From Sinosporangium siamense (lineage in GTDB: Bacteria > Actinomycetota > Actinomycetes > Streptosporangiales > Streptosporangiaceae), in the NCBI RefSeq assembly GCF_016863435.1, contig NZ_BOOW01000013.1:62001-126000 (forward strand): a DNA stretch of 64,000 nucleotides. Reading direction: 5' to 3'. Within the stretch, counting starts at the first letter, position 1; the number at the start of each line of letters is the position of its first letter. Shown here piece by piece: positions 1-12,371 of the stretch. The notes under the pieces were generated by a model that was not told where the DNA came from, searched no databases, and saw nothing but the letters and a program-made list of their open reading frames with translations. A program made the translations under genes and the position numbers.

Positions 1-119
1 TCGCTTGAGGGATTCGTCAGTTCGATCTAAGGGAACTTGTGAAACACCCTCACCCACGATGAGGGTACTTATACTGGTTTCGTATGCTTCGCTCCGCCGT
101 ACTTCGTGGTACTTCTCAG

Positions 120-164: not shown

Positions 165-270
165 GCGTTTCTTCGGTTTCACCGAGCCGGTTACCGAGGC
201 GCCGGAGGTCGATATGGATCGTTTGGTATCGCTGATGATTCTCGGCGTGGAACGGATACCCCGGTGGTGA
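145..270 (+). CDS. Possible small ORF coupled to the FxsT-like gene
   Basis: A 41-codon frame from ATG 145 (alternative ATG 157) ends in TGA at 268-270. The stop overlaps the start region of the next gene as GTGA (GTG 267-269), the coupling style used repeatedly in this window. The second half (residues 13-41) has ordinary protein composition, with acidic residues followed by a hydrophobic stretch. It does not end in the FxSxx motif of FxsA precursor peptides, so it is not an obvious RiPP precursor. The short repeats at 142-164 lie inside its 5' end and no good ribosome-binding site is seen, so it may be non-coding leader instead. Confidence 0.3.
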   Translation: MSSWMSRRFFGFTEPVTEAPEVDMDRLVSLMILGVERIPRW

Positions 271-3200
271 CCAGGACAGGCGGTGCAGGTAGCGGCATTA
301 TCATCTCTTTCCTCTCCTACGGCGGGGGAGCCGGCCAGACGGCGGCGGTCGCGAACATCGCCTGGATCCTCGCCGCCGCCGGGCAGAAGGTGCTCGTGGT
401 CGACAGCAGGGCCGAGGCCCCCGCGCTCCACCGCTACTTCGCCCCCTTCGGCCGCCCGCTCGTGATCAGGGACCGCCCCGCCGACCGGGGCGACCCGCTG
501 TCGGCGACCGTCCGCCTGGACTGCGACCCGCCCTCGCCGGAGGGCCGCGTCGACTACCTCGGCCCCGCCCTGCCCGAGCCCGCGCCGGGGATCAGGGGGG
601 AGAGCCCGCGCTTCGACTGGGCGGTGTGGTCGCGCCGCCTCCCCGAGCTCCGGCGCAGACTGATGGCGGCCGGCTACGACTATGTGCTCGTGGACGGGCC
701 CGCCGGCGGGGGTGACGCCGCCGTGGCGACCGCCGCCCAGCTCTCCGACTCCGTCGTGCTCTGCCTGTCGATGACGCCCGGCGTGATCCTCGGCAGCGGC
801 GCCCTGGCGCGGCGCATGCTGAGCAGGCGGTTCGAGGTGCGCATCCTGCCGGTGCCGATGGGGGTGGACGACCGCGACCCGCAGGGACTGCGCCGCGCCA
901 GGCTGCTGGCCCGCGAGCGGTTCGCCGCGATCACCACCGGCGGACCGGCGGTGCTGGGCCAGATCGAGGTGCCCTACCTGCCGGAGTTCTCCCACGACGA
1001 GAAGCTCGCCGTGCTGGTCGGCGGATCGCAGGCCGCACCGCTCGTGCGCGCCTACGAGCTGATGACCAGGGCGATCACCGACGACCGGGTGCGAACGGCG
1101 AACTCGCCGAGCGACGTGCTCCGGGAACGTTACATCCGCGCCCTCGACCACGCCTTCCCCACGCTCCCGCGCGCGGTCTCCATCGTCTACGCGCCGCGCG
1201 ACCGCGTGTGGGCCGACTGGTGCCGGGGGCTGCTCGGCGAGCACGGCGTGCCGACCGAGATGGTCTCGGTGATGCCGGCCAGGACGCTGCCCGCCGTCGA
1301 GGGCGGCCGCCACCTCCTGCTGATCTCACCCGGCCGGCTGATCGGCCTCAACCGGACGCACGTGGACGAGCCGCCGGGGGCCCAGCCGGGCGGCGGAGCC
1401 CAGGTCAGCCGCACCTTCGCCGTGTTGATCGACGACACCGAGCCGCCGGAGTGGGCCGCCTCGATCGACCGCATCGATCTGCGGGAGGTCAAGGAGGAGC
1501 AGGCCGAGGAGTTGCTGCGCAAACGGCTCGGGCTCACGCCGTTCCAGGAGTTCGGGCCGTCGCAGGGCACCCGTTTCCCCGGCGGGGTGAGGCGTGGCGG
1601 CACGGCGGAGGTCGGGGCGGCCCGGCTGCCCTTCCCTCCCCGATATGCCGGATTTGTCGGGCGAGATGGCTTTTTGGAGGAGATGCGGGACAACCTGGCG
1701 CCCACCACACTCGCCCAGGGGCCCTACTACCTGCGCGGCGCGGAGGGCGTCGGCAAGAGCCAGCTCGTGCTCGAATATGTCTACCGCTTCGCCTCCGACT
1801 ACGACATCATCTGGTGGATCCCCGGCGGCTCACGCAACGACATCCGCAAGGGGCTCGCCGACCTCGCCGTCACCCTGCAGATCCCCTCCAGAGGCGACGG
1901 GGCCAAGGCGATGCTCAAGGCCCTCGACGTCGAGCCCGCCCGCTGGCTGCTCGTCTACGACAACGTCGGCGACATCGCCCACCTCGACGGCCTCCTGCCG
2001 AGCTCGCGCGCCGGCCACGTCATCGTCACCCTGACCTCCACCGACCCCGAGAGCCCCGGCGAGCAGGTGCCTCCCTTCGAGCGGGAGGAGAGCGTCGCCC
2101 TGCTGCGCCGCGTGGTCCCCGCGCTGGACCCGGCGGGCGCCGCGACGGTGGCGCGAGCCGTACACGACGTCCCGCTCGCCGTCGAGCTGGCCGGGGCGTG
2201 GATCGGCGAGGACGCGCGGTGGCGGCGCTATCGCAACATCGGCGAGGGCGAGGCGGCGGCACTGGCGGTGACGAGGTTCCGCGAGGAACTGGCCCGGGAG
2301 GACGGCGCATCCTCGCGGGACGACTCCTCCGACATCAGGGCGATCGTGCGGATGGCCCTCAACGTGCTGAAGTTCCGCCGGCTCAGCGCCGGGGTGATCT
2401 GGATGCTCCAGCTCATCACCTTTCTCAACCCCGCGCATATCTCGCTGCGGCTGCTGCGCTCCTGGCCGGTGCTCGACGAGCTCGCCCGCTTCGGCGAGGG
2501 CCTCGACGACCCGCTGATGATCGACGCCGTGCTGGCCAAGGCCGAGTGCTACGGGCTGATCGAGGTGCGCTGGGGCAAGGACCCCGCCGTGCACACCAAC
2601 GCGCTCATCCAGCGGCTGATCCGCGAGGAGATGACCGAGGAGGAGACGAGAGTACGGCAGGCGCAGGCGTTGCGTGTGCTCGCGGCGCACGCCTATCCCC
2701 GGTTCGACCCGACCGACGACGCGCACAAGGCGGTGTTCGAGGAGCTGTGGAACCACCTGCGCCCCTCCGGCGCGCTCACCAGCACCGACACCCGCGTGTG
2801 CGACTGGATCCTGAACCAGCTCCGCTACCTCTACAACACCAGCAGAGGCAGCCGGCTGGAGGCGGGCCGCGAGATCGGCGCCGAGGCGATGGCGGTCTGG
2901 ACCCGGCACGCCGAGACCAGGGAACTCGTGCCCGACCTGCAGGTGCTGATGGCCAACCTCCAGCGGGCGCTCAACCGGTGGGACGAGGCCCACGCGCTCG
3001 ACCTCGGCGCGCTTGAGACCCTGCGGTCCCGCCACGGCCTGCGCAGCGCGCGCACCCTGGCCGCCAACCGCGGCTACGCCGCCGACCTGCGCGCCCTCGG
3101 CCGCTTCGACATGGCGGCGGCCGAGGAGCTCTCGATACTGCTGGTCTCCCGCTATCTGTTCGGCGACGACCACGAGCAGACCCTCGCCGCCGCCAACAAC

Positions 3201-4061
3201 TGCGCCCTGTCCGCCTATCTCGCGGGAAACGTGCACGAGGCGCTCGACCTCGAACAGCAGACCTACGCCAGGCGGGTCCGGCTGTGGGGCGCCGACTCCT
3301 ACTGGGCCCGCTGGAGCGGCTGCAACGTCGGCGTCTACCTGCGCGAACTCGGGCGCTACGAGGACGCGGAGGAGTGGCTGCGCAGCGTGCGCGAGAACGT
3401 CGGCGGGATCGGCGGCGCCACCCTCGACGTGGCCCGGCTGCGGCTGGACCGCAGCCTCGCCGCGACCTACCGCCGCCTCGGCCGCAAACTGGGCGACCCC
3501 GCCAAACTCGACCAGGCCCGCACCCTGCACAGCGCCACCCTGGAGGGGCACCGGGCGCTGTTCGGCGCGGACTACTCCTCGACGCTCGCCTGCACCGCGG
3601 GCTACGCGTGGACGCTGCACGCCGTCGGGGCGCACACGGCGGCCGTCGAGTACGGAACACTCGCCTACGAGGGCCTCAGCCGTACCGCCAACCCGTTCGC
3701 CATGGTCGCGGCGGCCAACCTCGCGGTCTTCCGGCGGGCCGTGGGCGACAAGGCCGCCGCCCGCGACCTCGGCGGGGAGGCGCTTGAACACCTGGCGGAA
3801 CGCCTCGGCGACCTGCACCCCTACACCCTGGCGGCCACCGTCAACCACGCCGGCACGCTGGCGGTCCTGGGCGATCACACCGGGGCGCTGCGCCTCGACC
3901 GCGGTGCCTGGGAAGGCTATGTCGCCCGGTTCGGCAGGGACAGTCCGTACGCCGCGATCGCCATGGCCAACTACGCCGACTCGCGCAGGCTTAGCCTGGG
4001 GGAGCCGGGCGCCGGCCGGCATGTGCGATCGGACATCGACATCGAGGTGCTGTGGTTCTGA
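264..4061 (+). CDS. FxsT-like protein: degenerate ParA/MinD domain, TIR-like segment, NB-ARC ATPase, TPR repeats
   Basis: 1265 residues in the layout of FxSxx-COOH-system TPR proteins (FxsT), regulators linked to radical-SAM peptide systems. Residues 13-270 match the ParA/MinD-type domain, but the usual KGGTGRT loop reads GGGAGQT (20-26) and the following acidic motif reads D47-S-R, so both signature lysines and the second aspartate are gone. Residues about 303-370 resemble a TIR/flavodoxin-like segment (SIVYAPRDRVWADW). An NB-ARC domain follows with an intact P-loop GAEGVGKS (492-499). The C-terminal third (about 850-1230) is alanine-rich tetratricopeptide repeats. Start is GTG 264 or GTG 267; the latter overlaps the stop of a small upstream frame. 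Seventeen bases separate it from the next gene. No fxsA or radical-SAM gene is visible; they could lie upstream of the window. Family assignment is from recalled motif similarity. Confidence 0.75.
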   Translation: MVTRTGGAGSGIIISFLSYGGGAGQTAAVANIAWILAAAGQKVLVVDSRAEAPALHRYFAPFGRPLVIRDRPADRGDPLSATVRLDCDPPSPEGRVDYLGPALPEPAPGIRGESPRFDWAVWSRRLPELRRRLMAAGYDYVLVDGPAGGGDAAVATAAQLSDSVVLCLSMTPGVILGSGALARRMLSRRFEVRILPVPMGVDDRDPQGLRRARLLARERFAAITTGGPAVLGQIEVPYLPEFSHDEKLAVLVGGSQAAPLVRAYELMTRAITDDRVRTANSPSDVLRERYIRALDHAFPTLPRAVSIVYAPRDRVWADWCRGLLGEHGVPTEMVSVMPARTLPAVEGGRHLLLISPGRLIGLNRTHVDEPPGAQPGGGAQVSRTFAVLIDDTEPPEWAASIDRIDLREVKEEQAEELLRKRLGLTPFQEFGPSQGTRFPGGVRRGGTAEVGAARLPFPPRYAGFVGRDGFLEEMRDNLAPTTLAQGPYYLRGAEGVGKSQLVLEYVYRFASDYDIIWWIPGGSRNDIRKGLADLAVTLQIPSRGDGAKAMLKALDVEPARWLLVYDNVGDIAHLDGLLPSSRAGHVIVTLTSTDPESPGEQVPPFEREESVALLRRVVPALDPAGAATVARAVHDVPLAVELAGAWIGEDARWRRYRNIGEGEAAALAVTRFREELAREDGASSRDDSSDIRAIVRMALNVLKFRRLSAGVIWMLQLITFLNPAHISLRLLRSWPVLDELARFGEGLDDPLMIDAVLAKAECYGLIEVRWGKDPAVHTNALIQRLIREEMTEEETRVRQAQALRVLAAHAYPRFDPTDDAHKAVFEELWNHLRPSGALTSTDTRVCDWILNQLRYLYNTSRGSRLEAGREIGAEAMAVWTRHAETRELVPDLQVLMANLQRALNRWDEAHALDLGALETLRSRHGLRSARTLAANRGYAADLRALGRFDMAAAEELSILLVSRYLFGDDHEQTLAAANNCALSAYLAGNVHEALDLEQQTYARRVRLWGADSYWARWSGCNVGVYLRELGRYEDAEEWLRSVRENVGGIGGATLDVARLRLDRSLAATYRRLGRKLGDPAKLDQARTLHSATLEGHRALFGADYSSTLACTAGYAWTLHAVGAHTAAVEYGTLAYEGLSRTANPFAMVAAANLAVFRRAVGDKAAARDLGGEALEHLAERLGDLHPYTLAATVNHAGTLAVLGDHTGALRLDRGAWEGYVARFGRDSPYAAIAMANYADSRRLSLGEPGAGRHVRSDIDIEVLWF

Positions 4062-4077: not shown

Positions 4078-5106
4078 ATGACCACTCGGCATCTGGACGT
4101 GCGCGAGGATCTGGCTCCGCACGCGGTGGGCGAGCAGGCCCGGCTCAAGAGCTCCTATGAGTGGCTCGTCGAGCCCTGCAGGGAGTTCCTCGCCGCCGAC
4201 AGGGGTGTGCACTACCTCGCGCACTACACAGGGGGCATCTTCGACTTCGCCCTGCACGTGCTCGGCGACCCCGCCGTCGCCGCCCGTCCCGGCTGCGCGG
4301 GGGCGGTGTCGCGGATCGGCGGGTTCCAGCAGGCCGGGCGGATGATGATCTTCCAGGTGGACCGGGCGGACGACTACCTCGCCGACCTGAAGACCGGCGG
4401 GCTGATCAGGACGGTCGTGGAGAGCGGCTCTGGGGCCGCCGTCTGCGGTCACGTGCGCCCCTACGAGTCCCTGGTGGCGGTGACCCTCGACCCGTCCCGG
4501 GTGTGGGACGCGGACAAGGGCATGGCGGAGCTGATCGGCGACATCCGGGGCCTCGTGAGCCTGCCCGACGAGGACCTCGGCGGGTTCCGGCGCGACGCGG
4601 TGCCTGCGAGCCACCCGCTGAGCGGCGACCTGCGCACCGAATACGGCGCCCCGGACTCCGACCCGCTCATCGAACGCGCCGCCCGGCTCACCGCCGCCGA
4701 GGTGGGGCCCGCCGATCTCCACTACCTCGCGTACTACGACCACTGGAGCCTGCGGTTCGCCGTGGACTGCTTCGCCCACCCCGACCTCGTGCGCTTCTTC
4801 ACCGACACCACCCCCGAGGCGCGGCGGGCGAAATATGCCGAGCTGGGCAGCCGGGCCGCGGTGATCGCCGGGGACTTCGGCCACGCCATACGTCTTGTCA
4901 GCCGCGACAAACCCGTGCGCATCGTGCTTGACGTACGGCAGGGCGCGATCTACGTGCGCTGGCTCGACACCGGCCGCTACCTCGTGGGCGTCACCCTCGA
5001 CCAGTCCATGGTGGCCGCCGCCGAACGCCGCCTCGACACGCTCCGGCCCCACATCGCCGCCCTGTTCCCGGTGCCCGCGGACGGCGCGGCCCCGCTCACG
5101 GGCTGA
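4078..5106 (+). CDS. Protein of unknown function, internally duplicated, possibly tandem Roadblock/LC7-like
   Basis: 342 residues from ATG 4078, preceded by GGAGGGGAA. It probably forms an operon with the FxsT-like gene 17 bases upstream. I do not recognise the family. The protein appears to consist of two related halves: VHYLAHYTGGIFDFALHVL in the first matches LHYLAYYDHWSLRFAVDCF in the second, and each is followed by a basic/hydrophobic alpha-beta stretch. The segment at about 255-330, including RIVLDVRQGAIYVRWLD and YLVGVTLDQS, resembles the helix-strand pattern of Roadblock/LC7 proteins, which partner small GTPases or ParA/MglA-type NTPases in actinomycetes. A partnership with the degenerate ParA-like neighbour is inferred from context only. 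No signal peptide, membrane segment or catalytic motif was seen. Confidence 0.6.
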   Translation: MTTRHLDVREDLAPHAVGEQARLKSSYEWLVEPCREFLAADRGVHYLAHYTGGIFDFALHVLGDPAVAARPGCAGAVSRIGGFQQAGRMMIFQVDRADDYLADLKTGGLIRTVVESGSGAAVCGHVRPYESLVAVTLDPSRVWDADKGMAELIGDIRGLVSLPDEDLGGFRRDAVPASHPLSGDLRTEYGAPDSDPLIERAARLTAAEVGPADLHYLAYYDHWSLRFAVDCFAHPDLVRFFTDTTPEARRAKYAELGSRAAVIAGDFGHAIRLVSRDKPVRIVLDVRQGAIYVRWLDTGRYLVGVTLDQSMVAAAERRLDTLRPHIAALFPVPADGAAPLTG

Positions 5107-5167: not shown

Positions 5168-7489
5168 TCAGGTGCGGGCCTCCACGGTGGCGAGGACCGA
5201 GCGGTAGACCCGGGGGCCGAGGCCGTCGAACGCCTGGCGCAGGTCCCGTTTGCGGGCCAGGCCGGTGTCGCTGACCTCGGAGAACGGCGAGGTCCACTCC
5301 ACCAGGTGGTCGAGGCTGCGCATTGGCAGCAGGTCGGCCGTGGCCTCGTAGACGTCGCAGATCTCCCGCAGCCGGTCGAGTTCCTGCGGCGCGATGTCAC
5401 GCAACCCCGACTCCGAACCGATGCTCTCCAGCCACTCCTGCACACTGATCTGGAACTGATCCACCAGCTTGTAGAGCAGCAGAGTCGCCCCCACCGCCGG
5501 CAGCGCCCCCGGCGTGGCCAGCTCGTGCCGCAGTGCGCCGCCGCGCGCCGCGGCACGCGGGCCCCGGGGCCGACGCCGTCGTTCGACGGCGAAGAGCTGC
5601 CTGAGCACCCGGTCGAGATCGTCGAGCGCGCCGAGCGCCGCCAGGGCACGTTCGAAGTGCTGCCCGATGCTGATCGGCAGCCGGCTCGACCGGGTCGAGG
5701 GCATGGATCGGGAAGGGGCGGTGAAGCTGATCCACTCCATCAGGCCCTCGGTGATGCGCCGCATGTCGCGGATCTCGCCGCTGAGCCGCTCGGTGCGTTT
5801 GTCGAGCAGGTCGAGCACGCCGGAGCCGTCGCTCGCGACGATGCGGTCGGTGCTGGCGCGCAGCCACGAGCGGAACTCGTTGTCGAAGTTGATCGAGTCG
5901 TACTGGATGGGTGCCCGGTCGAACAGCGTGTTCACCTTGGCGGTCAGCGCGGCGGGCACCCGCCCGTTGATCACCAGCACGCGGCGCACCGGGTCGGCCT
6001 CGGCGAGCACCGAGGACGCGGCGACCTCCAGCCGGTCGACCTCGGCTTTGTTGAGCACGGTGTCGGTGATCCACACCGCGCAGGCGCCCGTGCGGCCGAC
6101 TGGGATCCAGAAGTCGACCACGATCCTGCCCTGGATGCGCCACTGCTCCTGGTTGACCCACCCCTCCGAGCTGACGATGCGGCGCACGGCCGCCTTGATG
6201 TCGACCGGTTCCGCCTGGCGGAAGACACGCCGGGCGACCTCCCCGACCAGCAGGCCGGTGACCCGCTCCTCGGGATCGCCGTCTACGGTGACGTCCTCGG
6301 CGCCTTCGGGATCGAGGTCGCCGGGTTCGCCGGCCGGGGCACGTGTTATCTCGTTCCGGTGCCGTCCGGCGACGACTTCTCCGTAGGAGTAGTGCAGGAG
6401 CCGGATCGCCTGCCGGGGGATGCCGTCGCTGATCCGGACGATCTCCTCGGGGGCGTCCTCGTCGAAACGCGGGTGCGGCCACGCGCCCAACTGGATCCGG
6501 ATATATGCCTTTATGTGGTCGGGGTTGAACGGGGAGGGGGAGAGGATCCGCACGCGCTCCTTGGCGCTCGCCGTCAACATCTGCCGCGTGTCCGGCAGCC
6601 CGAAGATGATCAGCAGGCAGCCGGCGTTCACAAAGGCGTTGAGCAGCCGCTCGAACGCCGGAGTGACCTCCGGCGTGCCCTCGAAGAGCGGCAGCAGCCG
6701 CTCGAACTCGTCGATCAGCACGATGAGCTTACGGCCGGTGCGCCCGTGCAGATAGGCGAGTACGCCGATGGCCTCGATGGCGGCGACCTCGCTGTCGATG
6801 GCGCACGTGATGCCGTGCTCCCGCAGCAGCGGATCGGGCTCGGCGCCGCTCAGCCAGGCGTGGACCGACGGCTGGTATTCGTCCTCCAGGACGAGCTGGA
6901 GCGCGACGGCGAAATCCTGCCAGATGGCGAACTCCGCGAGGGCCGCCCTGAGCCGGTCGAGGGAGACGTTGCGCGCCATGCCGAACCGGCTGATGATTTC
7001 CTCGGCCGACCTTTTGCGGAACTCCGGCTGCTGGGTGAGCTGCCGGAAGACCGCGCTCTTCTGCAGGTTGTCCATCAGGGTGAAATGATGGTAGTCCTCG
7101 GCGAGCTGCTTGATCTGCTCGGCGGATATTTTCTTGATAAACCGGTCTAAGTAGAGCCTTAATAAGCTCCGGCCGGGTTCGTCGAACTCGATGAGGACGG
7201 TGTCCTCGCTGCGGCGCCGGGTGACGGCGTGCAGGACCTCAAGGGCGATGTGCGTCTTCCCCGTGCCGAACTCGCCGATGACCGCCAGCGCGCCGCCGAG
7301 CCCGGTCGTGCCGGTGCGGCCGGGCTCCATCGCGGCCAGATAGTCGTTGACGAAGGCCTTGACCTCGATCAGCGTCGGTGTCTGCACCGTCTGCGGCGGG
7401 CTCGCGGGACCGATCGTCAGGTGGGCGATGGCCGAGGGCGGGAAGGGATTTCGATCCGGCGGATCGGTCTGGACCTCGCGTGGCCTCAC
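5168..7489 (-). CDS. AAA-type P-loop ATPase, third gene of a coupled cassette
   Basis: 773 residues, GTG start at 7489. The Walker A motif is GEFGTGKT (72-79) and the Walker B is LIVLIDEF with D260-E261, followed by a sensor-like strand LLIIFGLPDTRQ. This arrangement resembles KAP/ORC-like and BREX-type (BrxC, DUF2791) ATP-binding proteins, but I cannot assign a named family. Residues about 400-560 contain a mixed alpha/beta domain (VVDFWIPVGRTGACAVWITD) recalling a restriction-endonuclease-like core without an obvious E-x-K. The C-terminal 200 residues are helical, with a short arginine-rich patch. Its start overlaps the stop of the upstream ATPase by GTGA (7486-7489), so translation is probably coupled. 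It converges on the FxsT-like operon with 61 bases between the stops. Confidence 0.7.
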   Translation of the reverse strand: MRPREVQTDPPDRNPFPPSAIAHLTIGPASPPQTVQTPTLIEVKAFVNDYLAAMEPGRTGTTGLGGALAVIGEFGTGKTHIALEVLHAVTRRRSEDTVLIEFDEPGRSLLRLYLDRFIKKISAEQIKQLAEDYHHFTLMDNLQKSAVFRQLTQQPEFRKRSAEEIISRFGMARNVSLDRLRAALAEFAIWQDFAVALQLVLEDEYQPSVHAWLSGAEPDPLLREHGITCAIDSEVAAIEAIGVLAYLHGRTGRKLIVLIDEFERLLPLFEGTPEVTPAFERLLNAFVNAGCLLIIFGLPDTRQMLTASAKERVRILSPSPFNPDHIKAYIRIQLGAWPHPRFDEDAPEEIVRISDGIPRQAIRLLHYSYGEVVAGRHRNEITRAPAGEPGDLDPEGAEDVTVDGDPEERVTGLLVGEVARRVFRQAEPVDIKAAVRRIVSSEGWVNQEQWRIQGRIVVDFWIPVGRTGACAVWITDTVLNKAEVDRLEVAASSVLAEADPVRRVLVINGRVPAALTAKVNTLFDRAPIQYDSINFDNEFRSWLRASTDRIVASDGSGVLDLLDKRTERLSGEIRDMRRITEGLMEWISFTAPSRSMPSTRSSRLPISIGQHFERALAALGALDDLDRVLRQLFAVERRRRPRGPRAAARGGALRHELATPGALPAVGATLLLYKLVDQFQISVQEWLESIGSESGLRDIAPQELDRLREICDVYEATADLLPMRSLDHLVEWTSPFSEVSDTGLARKRDLRQAFDGLGPRVYRSVLATVEART

Positions 7490-8430
7490 TCGCCCTCCTG
7501 TGGTTCGCCGAAGAAGTCAATCCAATTGTTTCCGAGGAAGCTGTTGAGATTCTCGTAGCTTATGGGCGCGCCCCCGTGCTGGGGGACGTAAGTCGAATAG
7601 AACTTGCAGAAATATTTCTGCAGAAAGCGGAGGGTGAAGAACTCCTCCGACTCCCTGATGTCGGTGAGAAATTCGATGAGCGCGTCGTCCGGGATCGACG
7701 GCAGCTCCTCCTGCTCCTCCGGCGGGAATCGCCGCTCGCGGTCCCTGAACCACGCCAGCCCGTCGGACGCCTGCAGCTTGCCGATCCGCACCGGGACGAG
7801 CGCCGAGCTGAACTCCTTCCGGATCGTGTTCGCCGGGGTGATCCCGAAACTCGGGATCTCGGCGAAGAAGACGATGTGGTTGAGTGCCAGCCTGGCCAGT
7901 TCGAGTATCTCCTCCTCAGACTTCGCCCTCGGCATCAGGGCCAGCACAATGAGCTTGTTCTTCTTCAGCAGCCCGCTCAATAGCCTGTAGGAGAGGATGA
8001 GGTCCTCCTCGGGGTCCACCGTGGCGAGGGAGTTCCATTCCTCGGTGGTGAAGAATCCGCCGCGATCGGCGCGCAACTGGTGCACCAGGGCCTTGAAGAG
8101 GGTGCGGGCCCGCCTCCTGTGGTCGCCCTCCGGGAAAATGCTGAAGAGGTCGACGATCACCGGCTGGTTCCTTTTCGGGAGGAGCCTGCGGTGGAGCCAG
8201 CTCACGCATTTGTTGACCAGCGCGGTCTTCCCGCAGCCGTCGCTGCCGGTGACCAGCACCACGTGCCCGTGCACCTCGATGTTGCCGAGTTCGCCGAACG
8301 CGCGGGTGAAGGCGTCGAACGAGTTGAACACATCGTCCACGTCCACATAGAGCGCCTCGTGGGTCTCGTCGACCCACGGGCAGAGCGCTTTGCTGGAATG
8401 CACGATGGGCGGCGCGCAAAAGGGGGTCAC
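7486..8430 (-). CDS. P-loop NTPase, second gene of a coupled cassette
   Basis: 314 residues, GTG start at 8430. The sequence VVLVTGSDGCGKTALVNK gives a clear Walker A (G62 to T69). The later hydrophobic strand KLIVLALMPRAKSEEE lacks the usual acidic Walker B residues, so hydrolysis may be impaired or use other residues. The rest is charged and helical (PPEEQEELPSIPDDALIEFL) and may be a winged-helix or regulatory segment. It overlaps both neighbours by GTGA (8427-8430 and 7486-7489), which ties the three genes into one translational unit. The middle position, and the pairing with a larger ATPase that keeps Walker B, suggest a heteromeric complex; this is inference. Confidence 0.7.
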   Translation of the reverse strand: MTPFCAPPIVHSSKALCPWVDETHEALYVDVDDVFNSFDAFTRAFGELGNIEVHGHVVLVTGSDGCGKTALVNKCVSWLHRRLLPKRNQPVIVDLFSIFPEGDHRRRARTLFKALVHQLRADRGGFFTTEEWNSLATVDPEEDLILSYRLLSGLLKKNKLIVLALMPRAKSEEEILELARLALNHIVFFAEIPSFGITPANTIRKEFSSALVPVRIGKLQASDGLAWFRDRERRFPPEEQEELPSIPDDALIEFLTDIRESEEFFTLRFLQKYFCKFYSTYVPQHGGAPISYENLNSFLGNNWIDFFGEPQEGE

Positions 8431-9401
8431 GTCGAACGCTCCGAATCATGAGGGTTGCCCGGATTTGCGTCTTGTTGCGTCGTGCTGCGTGTCGTGCTCG
8501 TGCTGCGTCCGGCAGTGCGCGCCGCCCTCCTCGCCGCCCGTCGCGCTCGCCGGGTCCGCCGTGTCTCCCTCGACCTGCCCAAGGCCGCCCCGGCGAAGAG
8601 CATCAGACCGTTGCCCGCGACGAGGTCCGCGAGCAGCCGGTTGTCCCGCTCGAACGTCGCCAGCGCCGCCCGGATGCGCTCGGGTTCGGGATTGTGGCCC
8701 GACGACTGGATGGCCAGCCAGTCGTCGTAGCCGATGACGCGGAGCTCCCCCTCCAATGTGACGCGCAGACGCGCGGCCGGCTCCCCGCACCGCTTGTGCA
8801 TGCCGCCCACGAGGAGGATCTGGCTGAGAAGATCGGCGTGCCTGGCCCGGGTCATCACCGGGTCCGGCTGCCTGCTGTCGTTGTCCGTCCAGTCATGCAA
8901 CTGCTGGGCATATGCCTCCCGGAACGCGGTGAATCTGGCCATCAGCAGGTCGGCTTCCCGGCGCCTGCGGTCCGAGGCCACCCGCCACTCCGTGCTGGCC
9001 AGGGTCAGCACCGCCCCGAAGGCGACCGGCACAAGCACCCCCAGCCAGCCCGACGGCGCACCCCCGCCGCCCTCCGGCGGGGCGGCCCCCGGCGACGACG
9101 CGCGTAGCGCCGCGCAGGCCCGGTCGAAGGGCTCCTTGTGCTCCTTGCGCCACTGGTCGACCGTGAGCCACTTGCCGTGCACTTTGAGGTTGCCGCCGGA
9201 CTTCTCGCTCGCGATGCCGAGATTGACCGCCGCGATCAGCAGGGGGTCCCGTTGAGCGGGGGACAGGCAGAAGACGAGTTGCGCGTCCTGCGCGGGATCC
9301 GGCGCGGCGGCGAAGGCGGCGGGCCCCGCGAGGAAGGCCAGACCGAGCACCCAACCCGAGCAGACGAGTGACAGGCGACCGGGCGTCCGCCAACCTCCCA
9401 T
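8427..9401 (-). CDS. Membrane-anchored protein with extracytoplasmic N-terminal domain, first gene of a coupled cassette
   Basis: 324 residues from ATG 9401, chosen because GGAGG lies eight bases upstream; an alternative ATG at 9407 is too close to that site. Residues 1-32 form a signal peptide (hydrophobic core GWVLGLAFLAGPAAFA). An extracytoplasmic segment of about 80 residues with two cysteines (C45, C96) follows, then one transmembrane helix (about 118-136) and a cytoplasmic helical domain (140-285). The C-terminal tail is very basic (about 290-310) and then Ser/Thr-rich. No enzyme motif was recognised. The stop overlaps the start of the downstream ATPase by GTGA, so the protein is likely made in step with two cytosolic ATPases. 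A sensor or membrane-effector role is possible but unproven. Confidence 0.65.
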   Translation of the reverse strand: MGGWRTPGRLSLVCSGWVLGLAFLAGPAAFAAAPDPAQDAQLVFCLSPAQRDPLLIAAVNLGIASEKSGGNLKVHGKWLTVDQWRKEHKEPFDRACAALRASSPGAAPPEGGGGAPSGWLGVLVPVAFGAVLTLASTEWRVASDRRRREADLLMARFTAFREAYAQQLHDWTDNDSRQPDPVMTRARHADLLSQILLVGGMHKRCGEPAARLRVTLEGELRVIGYDDWLAIQSSGHNPEPERIRAALATFERDNRLLADLVAGNGLMLFAGAALGRSRETRRTRRARRAARRAARTAGRSTSTTRSTTQQDANPGNPHDSERST

Positions 9402-9929
9402 GACCATATCCTCCGTCTTTGCACAGCGAAAATATAGACCGGAGGTGTACCGGGTGATATGTACTCTATGCAATTGGGATCCGTCAACGGGCTCCGTGGC
9501 CCAATCGAAACTTCGCGCTAATTAGCACTTTTCCCGGTTGCTGGGAGTTGGCTGCCAAGTCTGGGCCGCACCAGGTCAGAGGCCCTCCGTTTTGTCCGGA
9601 TCAGGGGGTAGAGGGCCGGTGCCATGGCCCCAAAGGCTTCTTTCCCTCACTGCCTTGGGCGGGATTCTCCGTACATCGCATGCGGAGTGCGGCGGGAGTG
9701 GCCTTTTCCCTTGAGCGCATGACTCACCCATGCGGTCGGTTACCCCACGTGACAGGTGCGACCACGATTCAACGGGCAGTCATCGGGTTTTACCCGAAGA
9801 GCGCCATTTTCTACAGCGGCGAAGGATGAAAGACTCGGGGCACCGAGCTCAATTCCGCCGATCCGGCGCGAGCCGTACCGGTCGGTTCCCTCCAGTCTCG
9901 GCCGTCGACCCCTGTCGGGAGGCACGCTC
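9402..9929. other. Intergenic region between the divergent cassette and the antiporter gene
   Basis: About 530 bases with lower GC in the first 130 bases, where the promoter of the minus-strand cassette is expected. The short frames here have poor composition and no ribosome-binding sites. Just before the antiporter start, CCTCC (about 9890) could pair with the GGGAGG ribosome-binding site at 9917-9922, which might modulate translation. No recognisable riboswitch consensus was found. Confidence 0.4.
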
Positions 9930-11078
9930 ATGTCCGATGAGCGGAGCACAGGCACACGCGCCGCGGCACGTCAGTTGTTCGCCGCGCTTCTCGTCGCCGC
10001 CGCCGGGCTCATCAGCGCCCGGCTCATCCATGTGGACGTGGAGGACCTCGCCGCCTCCGGCGCCTACACCGTCCTCGCCACCGCGCTCCTCGCCGTCGGG
10101 CTGTTCGGCAGCACCTTCGGCATCTCGCGCGAGGTCGCCCGTTTCGACGTGCGCACCATCGTGCTCGCCGTCACCGCCGGCGTGCTGCTGAAGGCGGTCC
10201 TGATCGCGGGGGTCATGTACCTCGTTTTCCGGGACCCCGCGCACCTCGTGCTGGCGATCGCCGTCACCCAGATCGACCCGCTCTCGGTCGCCGCCCGCAT
10301 CGGCGGCTCCCGCATGTCCCCGAGGGCCAGGACGATCCTGCTCGCCTGGGCGTCGTTCGACGATCCGATCACCGTCGTGCTGACCGTCTATCTGTCGGCC
10401 TTCGCCCTGTGGTTGTCCACCGGAGGTACGGCCGACCTCGGCCTCGGCCCCTACCTCGCCACCTTGGGCTGGAACCTGGCCCTGGCCGCTGCGGCTCTGG
10501 TGACATGGGCCGTTCTGACGGCGCTTCGCCGGGGTCCGGCCTTCCAGGTGGCGGTGCTTCTCGCCGTCCTCTCGGTGGGCGTGGCCTTCAACCTCATGCT
10601 GGCCGTCGCCCTCACGGGCCTGTTCTTCCGCCCCGCGATCGCCCCCCACGTCGAACGCGCCACCAAGGTCGCCCTCCACGCGGCCACCTTCATGCTGGGC
10701 ATGCTGCTGGTGAGCCTGACCGGCGCCGGAGCCCTGGCCGGGGTGGTGCTGGGCGCCGCGGCGTTCGGCGCCCAGGCCGTGGCAGGACTCCTGGTGGCCG
10801 GCCGGGGCCTGCGCGGCGACCGCGTGTCCTTCGCCTTGGCCCAGCAGAACGGGATAACGGCAGTCATCCTCGCGTTATCCCTGCAGCCGGCATTTCCTCA
10901 GGCGGTGGCGGTGATCGCACCCGCGATCCTCACCGTCAACGTCCTGCACATCGCGACGAACTCTCTTTACGAGCGCCGCCTGTCCCGGTCCGCCGCGCTT
11001 TCCGCACGGGAGCGGGAGGACGTGTCGCCCGCGCCACCACGACGAGTGGAAAGCGGTCCGCAGCCGTCACGGCAGTAG
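9930..11078 (+). CDS. Cation:proton antiporter, CPA superfamily
   Basis: 382 residues from ATG 9930, with CGGGAGG eight bases upstream. After a polar N-terminus it has about 11-12 hydrophobic segments. TQIDPLSVA in the middle of the first half corresponds to the unwound helix motif (S/A-T-D-P) of NhaP/CPA1 exchangers. ASFDDPITVVL corresponds to the helix carrying the ion-binding acidic pair, here Asp-Asp rather than Asn-Asp, which in CPA proteins often points to electrogenic exchange. It probably exchanges H+ for Na+ or K+ across the plasma membrane. At 382 residues it is on the short side and lacks a long cytoplasmic tail. It stands alone, with its neighbour convergent. Confidence 0.8.
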   Translation: MSDERSTGTRAAARQLFAALLVAAAGLISARLIHVDVEDLAASGAYTVLATALLAVGLFGSTFGISREVARFDVRTIVLAVTAGVLLKAVLIAGVMYLVFRDPAHLVLAIAVTQIDPLSVAARIGGSRMSPRARTILLAWASFDDPITVVLTVYLSAFALWLSTGGTADLGLGPYLATLGWNLALAAAALVTWAVLTALRRGPAFQVAVLLAVLSVGVAFNLMLAVALTGLFFRPAIAPHVERATKVALHAATFMLGMLLVSLTGAGALAGVVLGAAAFGAQAVAGLLVAGRGLRGDRVSFALAQQNGITAVILALSLQPAFPQAVAVIAPAILTVNVLHIATNSLYERRLSRSAALSAREREDVSPAPPRRVESGPQPSRQ

Positions 11079-11167
11079 GGACGCGGCGGACGGTGGGCTC
11101 AGGGTTGCCCGCACTCGGCCCCGGGCGTTCGGGCAACCCGAATGCGCGTGTGACGTCCAGCGGCGTT

Positions 11168-11617
11168 TCAGCGCCGTTGGTGCCTCATCTGCAGGCGTCG
11201 ATGGTGAAACATCCCTGCCACGAATAGCACCACCCAGAAGAGGATGAAGTACTTAATAACCCCAAATCCACCAAAGGCCACAGCGAGCACTAGAAGTGGT
11301 ATCCAAGGCCACGGGCCCGGGCCGCCACGCCGCCTGTGCACCGGGAGCCCCCCTCTGTGAGGGTGCCAGTGGTTGTTGTGGTGCCGGGGGCCGTGCGTCC
11401 GCTTCTGCTGGGCTCGTGGGGCGGGGGAGGGGGCGGCCGGCAGGTCGGCGGTCACCCGGGCGAGGTCGCCGGCCGTGCGGGCGGAGAGCGCCAGGTCCAG
11501 GCGCTCGTCCAGCTCCTCCAAGGTGATGTGCCCGACCGCGAAGGCCTCCCGGAGTGCCGTCGCCGTGGCGTCCCGCTCCGTATGACCGATGCGAAGATCC
11601 TCTGGCTTGTTCGTCAC
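11168..11617 (-). CDS. DUF1707 (SHOCT-like) domain membrane protein
   Basis: 149 residues from GTG 11617, with AGAAGG just upstream. The N-terminal 55 residues are a DUF1707 domain (LRIGHTERDATATALREAF, then LEELDERLDLAL), a short helical module common in actinobacterial membrane proteins. A basic, histidine-rich linker leads to a hydrophobic hairpin of two transmembrane helices and a basic tail. It lies 25 bases downstream of the padR gene and is surely co-transcribed, so it is likely a target of that regulator and perhaps an envelope-stress component. The molecular role of DUF1707 is unknown. Confidence 0.75.
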   Translation of the reverse strand: MTNKPEDLRIGHTERDATATALREAFAVGHITLEELDERLDLALSARTAGDLARVTADLPAAPSPAPRAQQKRTHGPRHHNNHWHPHRGGLPVHRRRGGPGPWPWIPLLVLAVAFGGFGVIKYFILFWVVLFVAGMFHHRRLQMRHQRR

Positions 11618-11642: not shown

Positions 11643-12371
11643 TCACTCGTCTCCAGGATCGCCGTCGGCCAGGATGTGGTAAAGCTTTCTGCGGCTTTCA
11701 ATCAGCACTTCTCGGGCCTGCCGCACCTGCGCCGGGGTGCCCGTCTGCATGATCTGGAACATCGCGAACCCCGACTGCCGCGCCAGGTCGATCAGCTCCC
11801 ACGTCGGATCGTCGAGGTCGGGCGCCATCTCCTCCCACGGGGCCCGCATCTCCTGCTGATTGGCGTCCACATAAGCCCGCCCCTCCTCGGTGAGGTGGAA
11901 CGTCTTACGTCCCTCGGACTCCTCCGACCGCACCAGCCCCTCGTCGGCGAGTTGCTGAAGCGCCGGATAGACGGCCCCCGGACTGGGCTTCCAGCCCCCG
12001 TGGCTGCGTGCCGCGATCTCCTGAATGATCTGGTAGCCGTTGCGCGGCTCCTCCGACAGCAGCGCCAGGATCGCCGCCCGCACGTCCCCCCGCTTGGCCT
12101 TGCGTCCCCTGCTGCCATGCCGGTGCCCGCCCCCGAAGGGGAACCGCGGCGGCATCCCCGGCCATCCCTGCCCTTCTCCAAACCCGAACGGGAACCGCGG
12201 CCCCCGCCGCCGCGACTCCCGCGGCCCATGGCCCTCCCGGTGGGCCTCCTCCCCGTGCCAGCCGCCCGCCATGACAGTCCATGCCTCACGCATGGCCCGC
12301 TTCACGTGATCACGCACCTCACCGGCACCGGGACAGGCGTCACCCGCGCCCATCGAATGAGCCGAAGCCAT
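11643..12371 (-). CDS. PadR family transcriptional regulator
   Basis: 242 residues from ATG 12371, with AAGGGGG upstream. The first 95 residues are low-complexity and rich in Gly, His and Arg. A typical PadR winged helix follows (RAAILALLSEEPRNGYQII, then SPGAVYPALQQLADEGLV), and then a helical C-terminal domain for dimerisation. PadR proteins are repressors that respond to small molecules. Two perfect 12-base palindromes directly upstream (12388-12399 and 12422-12433) suggest autoregulation, and the DUF1707 membrane gene downstream is the probable co-regulated target. Confidence 0.88.
   Translation of the reverse strand: MASAHSMGAGDACPGAGEVRDHVKRAMREAWTVMAGGWHGEEAHREGHGPRESRRRGPRFPFGFGEGQGWPGMPPRFPFGGGHRHGSRGRKAKRGDVRAAILALLSEEPRNGYQIIQEIAARSHGGWKPSPGAVYPALQQLADEGLVRSEESEGRKTFHLTEEGRAYVDANQQEMRAPWEEMAPDLDDPTWELIDLARQSGFAMFQIMQTGTPAQVRQAREVLIESRRKLYHILADGDPGDE

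What the first reader, a model, noticed from the sequence alone, without database searches (positions are those of the whole stretch)
5168..9401. Three-gene membrane/two-ATPase cassette with GTGA joints at both junctions
A signal-peptide and single-helix protein with an extracytoplasmic domain and basic cytosolic tail is followed by a P-loop NTPase and a larger AAA-type ATPase, each overlapping the next by GTGA. Tight coupling suggests a fixed-stoichiometry complex. I cannot map the trio to a named system. It converges on an FxsT-like STAND-type protein, so the whole 0-9.4 kb block may be a conflict or signalling island.
Basis: partly seen in the sequence, partly recalled or inferred. Interest (0 to 1): 0.75.

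Follow-up and report, generated by a model that had tools for sequence, protein, structure and literature searches.

The report
ATPase module of a peptide-signalling island
A membrane protein and two ATPases found side by side in a soil bacterium belong to a larger, recurring gene island built around a small chemically modified peptide and an immune-receptor-like protein; the peptide part was already known, and I found no description of the ATPase part.

Summary
In detail: three minus-strand genes (M 9401-8427, S 8430-7486, B 7489-5168) overlap by GTGA. Such overlaps are ordinary; the island is the finding. FxsB, an aKG-HExxH hydroxylase and the precursor fxsA lie just upstream of the window (its last 30 bases...GFVSSI-stop, are window 1-30); FxsT (264-4061) and P5 (4078-5106, predicted tandem Roadblock/LC7) follow. 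So the trio sits in an FxSxx-COOH cyclophane-peptide system. In named actinobacterial genomes 44 of 53 loci called for B have FxsT within 2.7 kb and 43 have P5. In 200 family genomes 19 of 23 with B hold full-length P5, against 2 of 177 without. B is an intact ORC/BrxD-like AAA+ ATPase; S keeps a P-loop but lacks Walker B acids; M has a two-cysteine ectodomain and a membrane helix. A fixed-stoichiometry trio is not general: M and S are both recognised in 24 of the 53 loci. Divergent S'-B' pairs sit beside FxsB in a second layout. Best reading: an ATP-driven membrane control module for FxsT. Function is inferred, not shown.

The parts
1..30 (+). 3' end of fxsA, precursor peptide ending GFVSSI-COOH; the whole gene is L002:11827-12030 (67 aa, P0006), mostly outside the window
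   Evidence: TIGR04268 E 8.9e-7, 29.0 bits against cut-off 28; translation
264..4061 (+). FxsT-like protein: ParA/KGGVGR-like N-terminus, weak TIR-like stretch, STAND-type ATPase, TPRs (P0004)
   Evidence: NF040586 E 1.5e-185; NF047398 3.3e-15, below its cut-off; TPR_12 3.7e-20, TIR_2 0.0039 below cut-off
4078..5106 (+). P5: predicted tandem Roadblock/LC7 protein (P0005)
   Evidence: no family hit; AlphaFold2 pLDDT 92.0, pTM 0.91; Foldseek: no match at E 0.001 or better, first row a Mon1-Ccz1 complex chain (probability 0.57), then MglB and Roadblock chains at probability 1.00, TM by target 0.60-0.79, best E 2.1e-3
5168..7489 (-). B: ORC/Cdc6/BrxD-like AAA+ ATPase with an alpha/beta middle domain and a helical C-terminal part (P0003)
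   Evidence: AAA_22 4e-7; mad8 1.4e-5; mad8 in 13, BrxD in 8, BrxC_BrxD in 7 of 21 family members; model pLDDT 80.5; Foldseek ORC/Cdc6, RFC, TnsC, BrxC, mainly the AAA+ part; Walker A K 63/64, Walker B D 63/64, E 60/64
7486..8430 (-). S: P-loop protein without Walker B acids (P0002)
   Evidence: P-loop K in 48 of 53, Walker B position reads hhLLP (P in 50 of 53), E191 in 51 of 53; an 82-column lid-region match to B, hhalign probability 96%
8427..9401 (-). M: signal peptide, small ectodomain with two conserved cysteines, one TM helix, cytosolic part (P0001)
   Evidence: Cys45 in 33 of 40 and Cys96 in 35 of 40, gaps in the rest; alignments; no family above cut-off
9930..11078 (+). N: multi-pass membrane protein that lies between B and P5 in many relatives; here on the other side of M. 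Antiporter-like by eye only
   Evidence: 10 homologues 46-51% identical to it; no Pfam or PDB match

Best explanation
The trio is the membrane-tethered ATPase control module of an extended FxSxx-COOH peptide system. Shown: gene content, recurring order, co-occurrence, ATPase motif states. Inferred: FxsB and the HExxH enzyme make a cyclophane-bearing, hydroxylated peptide from FxsA; M senses an envelope event or the peptide through its two-cysteine ectodomain; S (a nucleotide-binding pseudo-ATPase) links M to B; B, an ORC/BrxD-like AAA+ remodeller, then licenses or restrains assembly of FxsT, a STAND receptor expected to trigger a growth-limiting or suicidal response. P5 (Roadblock scaffold) and N (membrane protein) act in the same step.
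For: Core Fxs genes beside it. Of 53 named loci called for B, 44 have FxsT within 2.7 kb, 43 P5, 40 HExxH, 36 FxsB, 36 a recognised FxsA (layouts). In the family survey 19 of 23 genomes with B also carry full-length P5, against 2 of 177 without B, Fisher p 1e-20, phylogeny not corrected. In 4 of the 19 (G068, G098, G120, G091) the Fxs genes and the trio lie on different contigs; in G098 they are at least about 36 kb apart, in the other three the drafts cannot tell. B and FxsT distances correlate at rho 0.91 over 53 loci (duplicates among 8 listed loci dropped), permuted maximum 0.32. Divergent S'-B' pairs recur beside FxsB in a second layout, in 5 of 12 loci fetched from the 25 places. Kaur 2020 links FxSxx peptides and AP-ATPases to conflict systems (section read).
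Against: No experiment. M and S are both recognised in only 24 of the 53 loci; of these 24, 17 have FxsT nearby, 17 P5, 14 HExxH, 10 FxsB and 10 FxsA, so complete trios are less often with the peptide genes than B alone; five of them (L103, L104, L109, L111, L119) have HExxH but no recognised FxsB. Trios without Fxs neighbours exist (G102, G062, G130, Streptomyces L078 and L079). FxsT is far commoner than the trio: 172 against 23 of 200 genomes. The distance correlation may only reflect species relationships. Nothing joins B to FxsT physically.
Confidence: 0.45

Rival explanations
1. The trio is an export or surface-display motor for the modified FxsA peptide: M and N form the membrane path and S-B supply ATP, in the manner of ExeA-type secretion ATPases.
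For: Membrane protein plus AAA+ ATPase next to a peptide-modifying operon; N is a conserved multi-pass protein; B has a weak match to the XrtA/PEP-CTERM-associated ATPase family TIGR03015, E 0.0013. No systematic search for another exporter was made.
Against: M has one main helix; M-S-B also occurs near sub-threshold DO-GTPase2 matches with vWA, PP2C or kinase-like genes and no Fxs gene recognised (L036, L178) and without Fxs genes in the fetched stretch (L173, L078); N was recognised in only 27 of 53 named loci.
Confidence: 0.2
2. The trio is an autonomous anti-phage module of BrxD/MADS8-like type that acts on nucleic acid and merely shares an island with the Fxs genes.
For: Remote similarity of B to mad8 and BrxD; DNA-handling AAA+ proteins (ORC, TnsC, RFC) are among its nearest folds; trios without Fxs neighbours exist.
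Against: Co-occurrence with P5, also in genomes where the two are on different contigs; M has an extracytoplasmic part; no match on phages or plasmids at 1e-5; of the middle-domain positions looked at, D459 is kept in 53 of 64 but 476 varies, so no nuclease motif is evident.
Confidence: 0.2
3. Ordinary operon linkage with a housekeeping envelope function; the Fxs neighbourhood is a tolerant region.
For: None of the three has a tested function; M and S are missing beside B in many loci.
Against: The same order recurs in several actinobacterial families (titles, family assignment recalled), and B is patchy: 23 of 200 family genomes, and no strong hit besides the window genome in 396 genomes of the phylum.
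Confidence: 0.1

Closest known systems
FxSxx-COOH peptide-processing systems (FxsA, FxsB, HExxH, FxsT; NCBIfam; Kaur et al. 2020 eLife, PMC7159879, section 'Peptide-processing systems')
   Same: All four known components are present beside the trio; the paper mentions stand-alone actinobacterial versions with an AP-ATPase carrying an inactive MinD/ParA-like domain, which fits P0004
   Different: M, S, B, P5 and N are not mentioned in the three sections read; Roadblock, BREX, antiporter and KAP (whole words) do not occur in the main text. Supplements and figures were not seen
BrxC/BrxD (BREX) and MADS8 ATPases
   Same: Remote sequence similarity and ORC-like AAA+ core of B
   Different: The window protein does not match PF10923; it is often paired with a Walker-B-less partner and a bitopic membrane protein
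DO-GTPase / GAP1-N2 conflict systems with kinase, PP2C and vWA (Kaur 2020, section 29)
   Same: Remote M-S-S-B sets sit in loci that resemble these (L036, L178)
   Different: The DO-GTPase2 and kinase matches are below the Pfam cut-offs; P0001-P0005 have no such hit
MglB and other Roadblock/LC7 proteins
   Same: Predicted fold of each half of P5
   Different: Tandem in one chain, no sequence-level hit; a partner small GTPase was not searched for

Membership tests
FxSxx-COOH peptide system | small precursor with F-x-S-x-x C-terminus | tested here: met
   P0006 ends FVSSI; TIGR04268 29.0 bits, cut-off 28. In 40 relative loci with B and a recognised FxsA (duplicates not removed): 14 end F-x-S-x-x, 6 aromatic-x-N-x-x, 14 have aromatic-x-S/N within the last 14 residues, 6 other
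FxSxx-COOH peptide system | FxsB radical SAM/SPASM maturase | tested here: met
   TIGR04269 450.5 bits, cut-off 370
FxSxx-COOH peptide system | aKG-HExxH hydroxylase | tested here: met
   TIGR04267 154.1 bits, cut-off 40
FxSxx-COOH peptide system | FxsT STAND-TPR protein | tested here: met
   NF040586 619.1 bits, cut-off 300
BREX BrxC/BrxD | match of B to PF10923 | tested here: not met
   not among hits of P0003 at E up to 1; 7 of 21 family members at E up to 0.01
BREX BrxC/BrxD | other BREX genes (PglZ, PglX, BrxB) nearby | not tested
   only P0001-P0005 and the members of A1 were scanned against PADLOC
VMAP-ternary system | MoxR-vWA pair nearby | not tested
   no dedicated search was made
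Roadblock/LC7 (P5) | fold | tested here: met
   model; Foldseek probability 1.00 to many MglB/Roadblock chains, though E is 2.1e-3 at best
Roadblock/LC7 (P5) | sequence profile | tested here: not met
   no Pfam or NCBIfam hit at E up to 1
CPA-type antiporter (N) | sequence profile | tested here: not met
   the resemblance of QIDPLSVAA and SFDDP to antiporter motifs is recalled, not tested

The most novel reading that the evidence does not exclude
A nine-part surveillance machine in mycelial actinobacteria: a self-made cyclophane peptide is read at the membrane by a disulfide-bonded ectodomain protein, passed through a pseudo-ATPase/AAA+ pair and a double-Roadblock scaffold, and gates an NLR-like receptor (FxsT), so that neighbouring hyphae share an alarm or commit suicide. 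The S-B pair would be a general plug-in ATPase switch reused by DO-GTPase-like and KAP-containing conflict systems.
Probability: 0.15. Interest if true: 0.85.

Novelty: new variant of a known kind. Interest (0 to 1): 0.6.

Why it matters
FxSxx-COOH systems are very common in this family (FxsT at E up to 1e-60 in 172 of 200 genomes), yet in the searches I made I found no experiment on what the peptide does; Kaur 2020 predicts a toxin or signal. A defined, co-occurring ATPase module gives concrete partners to test, and it links a RiPP pathway, a STAND receptor, AAA+ ATPases and a Roadblock protein in one island.

Tried and rejected
Rejected: the GTGA joints as a finding (ordinary, and variable in relatives). 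Rejected: a docking-motif reading of the N-terminal NPF shared by S and B (30 of 53 and 32 of 64 within the first 45 residues, 2 of 896 other proteins); it may be the N-terminal signature of ExeA-like AAA+ proteins (recalled), so I use it only as a sign of common descent. Rejected: trio as BREX (membership not met). Surveys that found little: the single S protein gave the window genome and one weak hit (E 6e-4) of 296 genomes of the phylum; the B profile gave the window genome and five partial hits (E 1e-13 to 8e-11) of 396, so B is rare outside its order; the named loci come from a pattern scan of a much larger set. Called absences of M, S and FxsA may be misses: a re-scan of raw ORFs in 29 loci found M in two (L100, L108). 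The FxsT-like call in L079 is a 578-aa match 8.3 kb from B and I do not count it; L122 (Chromobacterium, 269 aa) is probably not a true B. Literature: searches for FxSxx-COOH, FxsA/FxsB, FxsB with cyclophane, FxSxx or radical SAM, cyclophane-forming with radical SAM, FxsA/rSAM/HExxH, BrxD/DUF2791, TIR-like/NB-ARC/roadblock, and KAP with radical SAM and STAND gave one paper on the Fxs system, PMC7159879 (abstract, sections 24, 29, 33 and found passages seen). PMC12636437 and PMC8195603: found passages only. The library lacks most subscription papers; Haft and Basu 2011 and Morishita 2024 were not read.
Full report
What is there. The window is G000:C13:62001-126000; a genome of the same genus (G004) is Sinosporangium album, judged by equal contig length and place (G004:C56 and L066). 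Three minus-strand genes, M (9401-8427), S (8430-7486) and B (7489-5168), overlap by GTGA at both joints. They face FxsT (264-4061) and a 342-aa protein, P5 (4078-5106).

The island extends upstream of the window. In L002 (C13:50001-70000) the HExxH beta-hydroxylase (8969-10240, minus), FxsB (10366-11496, minus) and fxsA (11827-12030, plus) pass their NCBIfam cut-offs.

Conservation in the family. A search with B in 200 family genomes found matches in 23, the window's own included. I fetched wide loci for all 22 relatives and called genes with a simple codon model of my own. In 14 of the 22, M, S, B, P5 and FxsT lie together; in 4 more (G068, G098, G120, G091) FxsT and P5 lie on another contig, at least about 36 kb away in G098 and undecidable in the three other drafts; in 4 (G062, G075, G102, G130) no P5 was found. 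P5 at full length was found in 21 genomes, of which 19 have B (Fisher 1e-20; relatedness not corrected). FxsT itself is in 172 of 200, so the trio marks a subtype, not every Fxs system.

Conservation in named genomes. A pattern scan gave 57 loci, 53 with a gene called as B, one of them (L122, Chromobacterium, 269 aa) probably not a true B. Of the 53, 44 have FxsT within 2.7 kb of B (a 45th call, in L079, is a 578-aa match 8.3 kb away), 43 P5, 40 HExxH, 36 FxsB, 36 a recognised FxsA and 27 N. S was called in 37 and M in 23, or 25 after a re-scan of raw ORFs of 29 loci. M and S are both present in 24; of these 17 have FxsT nearby, 17 P5, 14 HExxH, 10 FxsB, 10 FxsA. Five of them (L103, L104, L109, L111, L119) have HExxH but no recognised FxsB. 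Loci without FxsT: three Spongiactinospora loci (L076, L077, L088) whose Fxs set is on another contig, two on contigs that end right after B (L081; L105, whose genome holds HExxH, FxsA, FxsT and P5 on another contig), L072, L078 and L122.

Fourteen loci of Micromonospora and Verrucosispora have B with neither M nor S (in L086 the contig begins at B), while five others of these genera have both. Thirteen loci, 11 of them Saccharothrix, have S-B without M. In six of the fourteen that I printed (L067, L069, L070, L075, L081, L096) a membrane-protein-like gene of about 600 aa lies upstream and divergent, in two of them with other genes between; the one scanned carries TrkA_N and RyR domains (L070).

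The usual order is M S B facing N P5 FxsT FxsA, then FxsB and HExxH outwards. In the window N lies on the far side of M instead (9930-11078). Over 53 loci with B, FxsT and P5 (eight listed loci, held twice or without the set, were dropped) pairwise distances of B and FxsT correlate at 0.91, B and P5 at 0.73, FxsT and P5 at 0.77, permuted maxima 0.29-0.33; species relationships alone could give this. B is rare in the phylum at large: no strong hit besides the window genome in 396 genomes, and none on phages or plasmids.

Proteins. B: AAA_22 hit, remote BrxC/BrxD and mad8 matches in family members, AlphaFold model of pLDDT 80.5 whose best structural neighbours are ORC1/Cdc6, TnsC, clamp loaders and, lower down, a BrxC fragment, with TM scores by query of 0.12-0.28, so mainly the AAA+ part. 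Over 64 sequences Walker A and Walker B are nearly invariant. The middle domain (about 412-530) has an alpha-beta-beta-beta-alpha-beta order like restriction-enzyme folds; that is my reading of the model and it was not searched on its own. S: over 53 sequences the P-loop is kept, while the Walker B strand ends in LLP and a glutamate ends the next strand, so S probably binds nucleotide but hydrolyses poorly (inference). Its lid region resembles that of B. M: signal peptide, ectodomain with two conserved cysteines, Trp and Phe, a TM helix, a cytosolic part. P5: confident model of two alpha-beta-beta-alpha-beta-beta-beta-alpha repeats; Foldseek gives MglB and other Roadblock chains at probability 1.00 with E of 2.1e-3 at best, below a first row from a Mon1-Ccz1 complex at probability 0.57. 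FxsT: NF040586 plus a ParA/KGGVGR-like start.

Other settings. A profile search of 200 genomes of the order found 21 with B at 1e-20. Of 12 loci fetched from its 25 places, four hold M-S-B with FxsT, P5, N and FxsB (L174-L177), one M-S-B without Fxs genes (L173), one M-S-S-B beside sub-threshold DO-GTPase2 and kinase matches (L178), five a divergent S'-B' pair directly beside FxsB and HExxH with FxsT near (L168-L172; S' reached the S profile at 1e-4 to 1e-3 in four and is by eye in L172; FxsA was recognised in two), and one a B' without Fxs genes (L179). In L170, the only one of these scanned, the gene before S' is a KAP ATPase (E 1.3e-36) and an nSTAND1-TPR protein lies beside FxsA. So B-type ATPases are joined to Fxs systems in two layouts.

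Mechanism. I propose an ATP-driven membrane control module for FxsT (0.45), against peptide export (0.2), autonomous BrxD-like defence (0.2) and an unrelated function (0.1). The chemistry of the peptide is taken from the NCBIfam names and from passages of PMC12636437 that cite a characterised radical SAM/HExxH protein.

Novelty. The Fxs core and its link to conflict systems are known (Kaur 2020, section read). In the searches named under Tried and rejected I found no account of M-S-B, P5 or N with it. I therefore rate it a new variant of a known kind.

Noticed in passing
L168-L172 (for example L170:3898-18009): A second Fxs layout: KAP ATPase, S', B' (889-928 aa), FxsB, HExxH, FxsT, in two of five a recognised FxsA, and an nSTAND1-TPR protein; Pfam was run only on L170, the others resemble it by eye.
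   Followed up: partly
L036:8529-17018 and L178:1016-17448: M-S-S-B remote copies inside loci with sub-threshold DO-GTPase2 hits, vWA and PP2C (L036) and a sub-threshold kinase hit (L178).
   Followed up: partly
L070:7303-9638 and five other Micromonospora/Verrucosispora loci: A TrkA_N plus RyR membrane protein (domains tested in L070 only) and a protein of about 170 aa, divergent from B, where M and S are missing.
   Followed up: partly
L159-L162, L165: P5-N pairs without trio or FxsT recognised in the fetched 20 kb; their P5 matches the family mainly in the C-terminal half.
   Followed up: no
L066/L040 (Sinosporangium album): FxsA-like peptide ends GFRNAI (F-x-N) and no FxsB or HExxH was recognised within the fetched 20-22 kb.
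   Followed up: no
L103, L104, L109, L111, L119: M-S-B loci with FxsT, P5 and HExxH but no recognised FxsB.
   Followed up: no
window 11643-12155 -: A gene that looks like a PadR-type regulator near N (by eye only).
   Followed up: no
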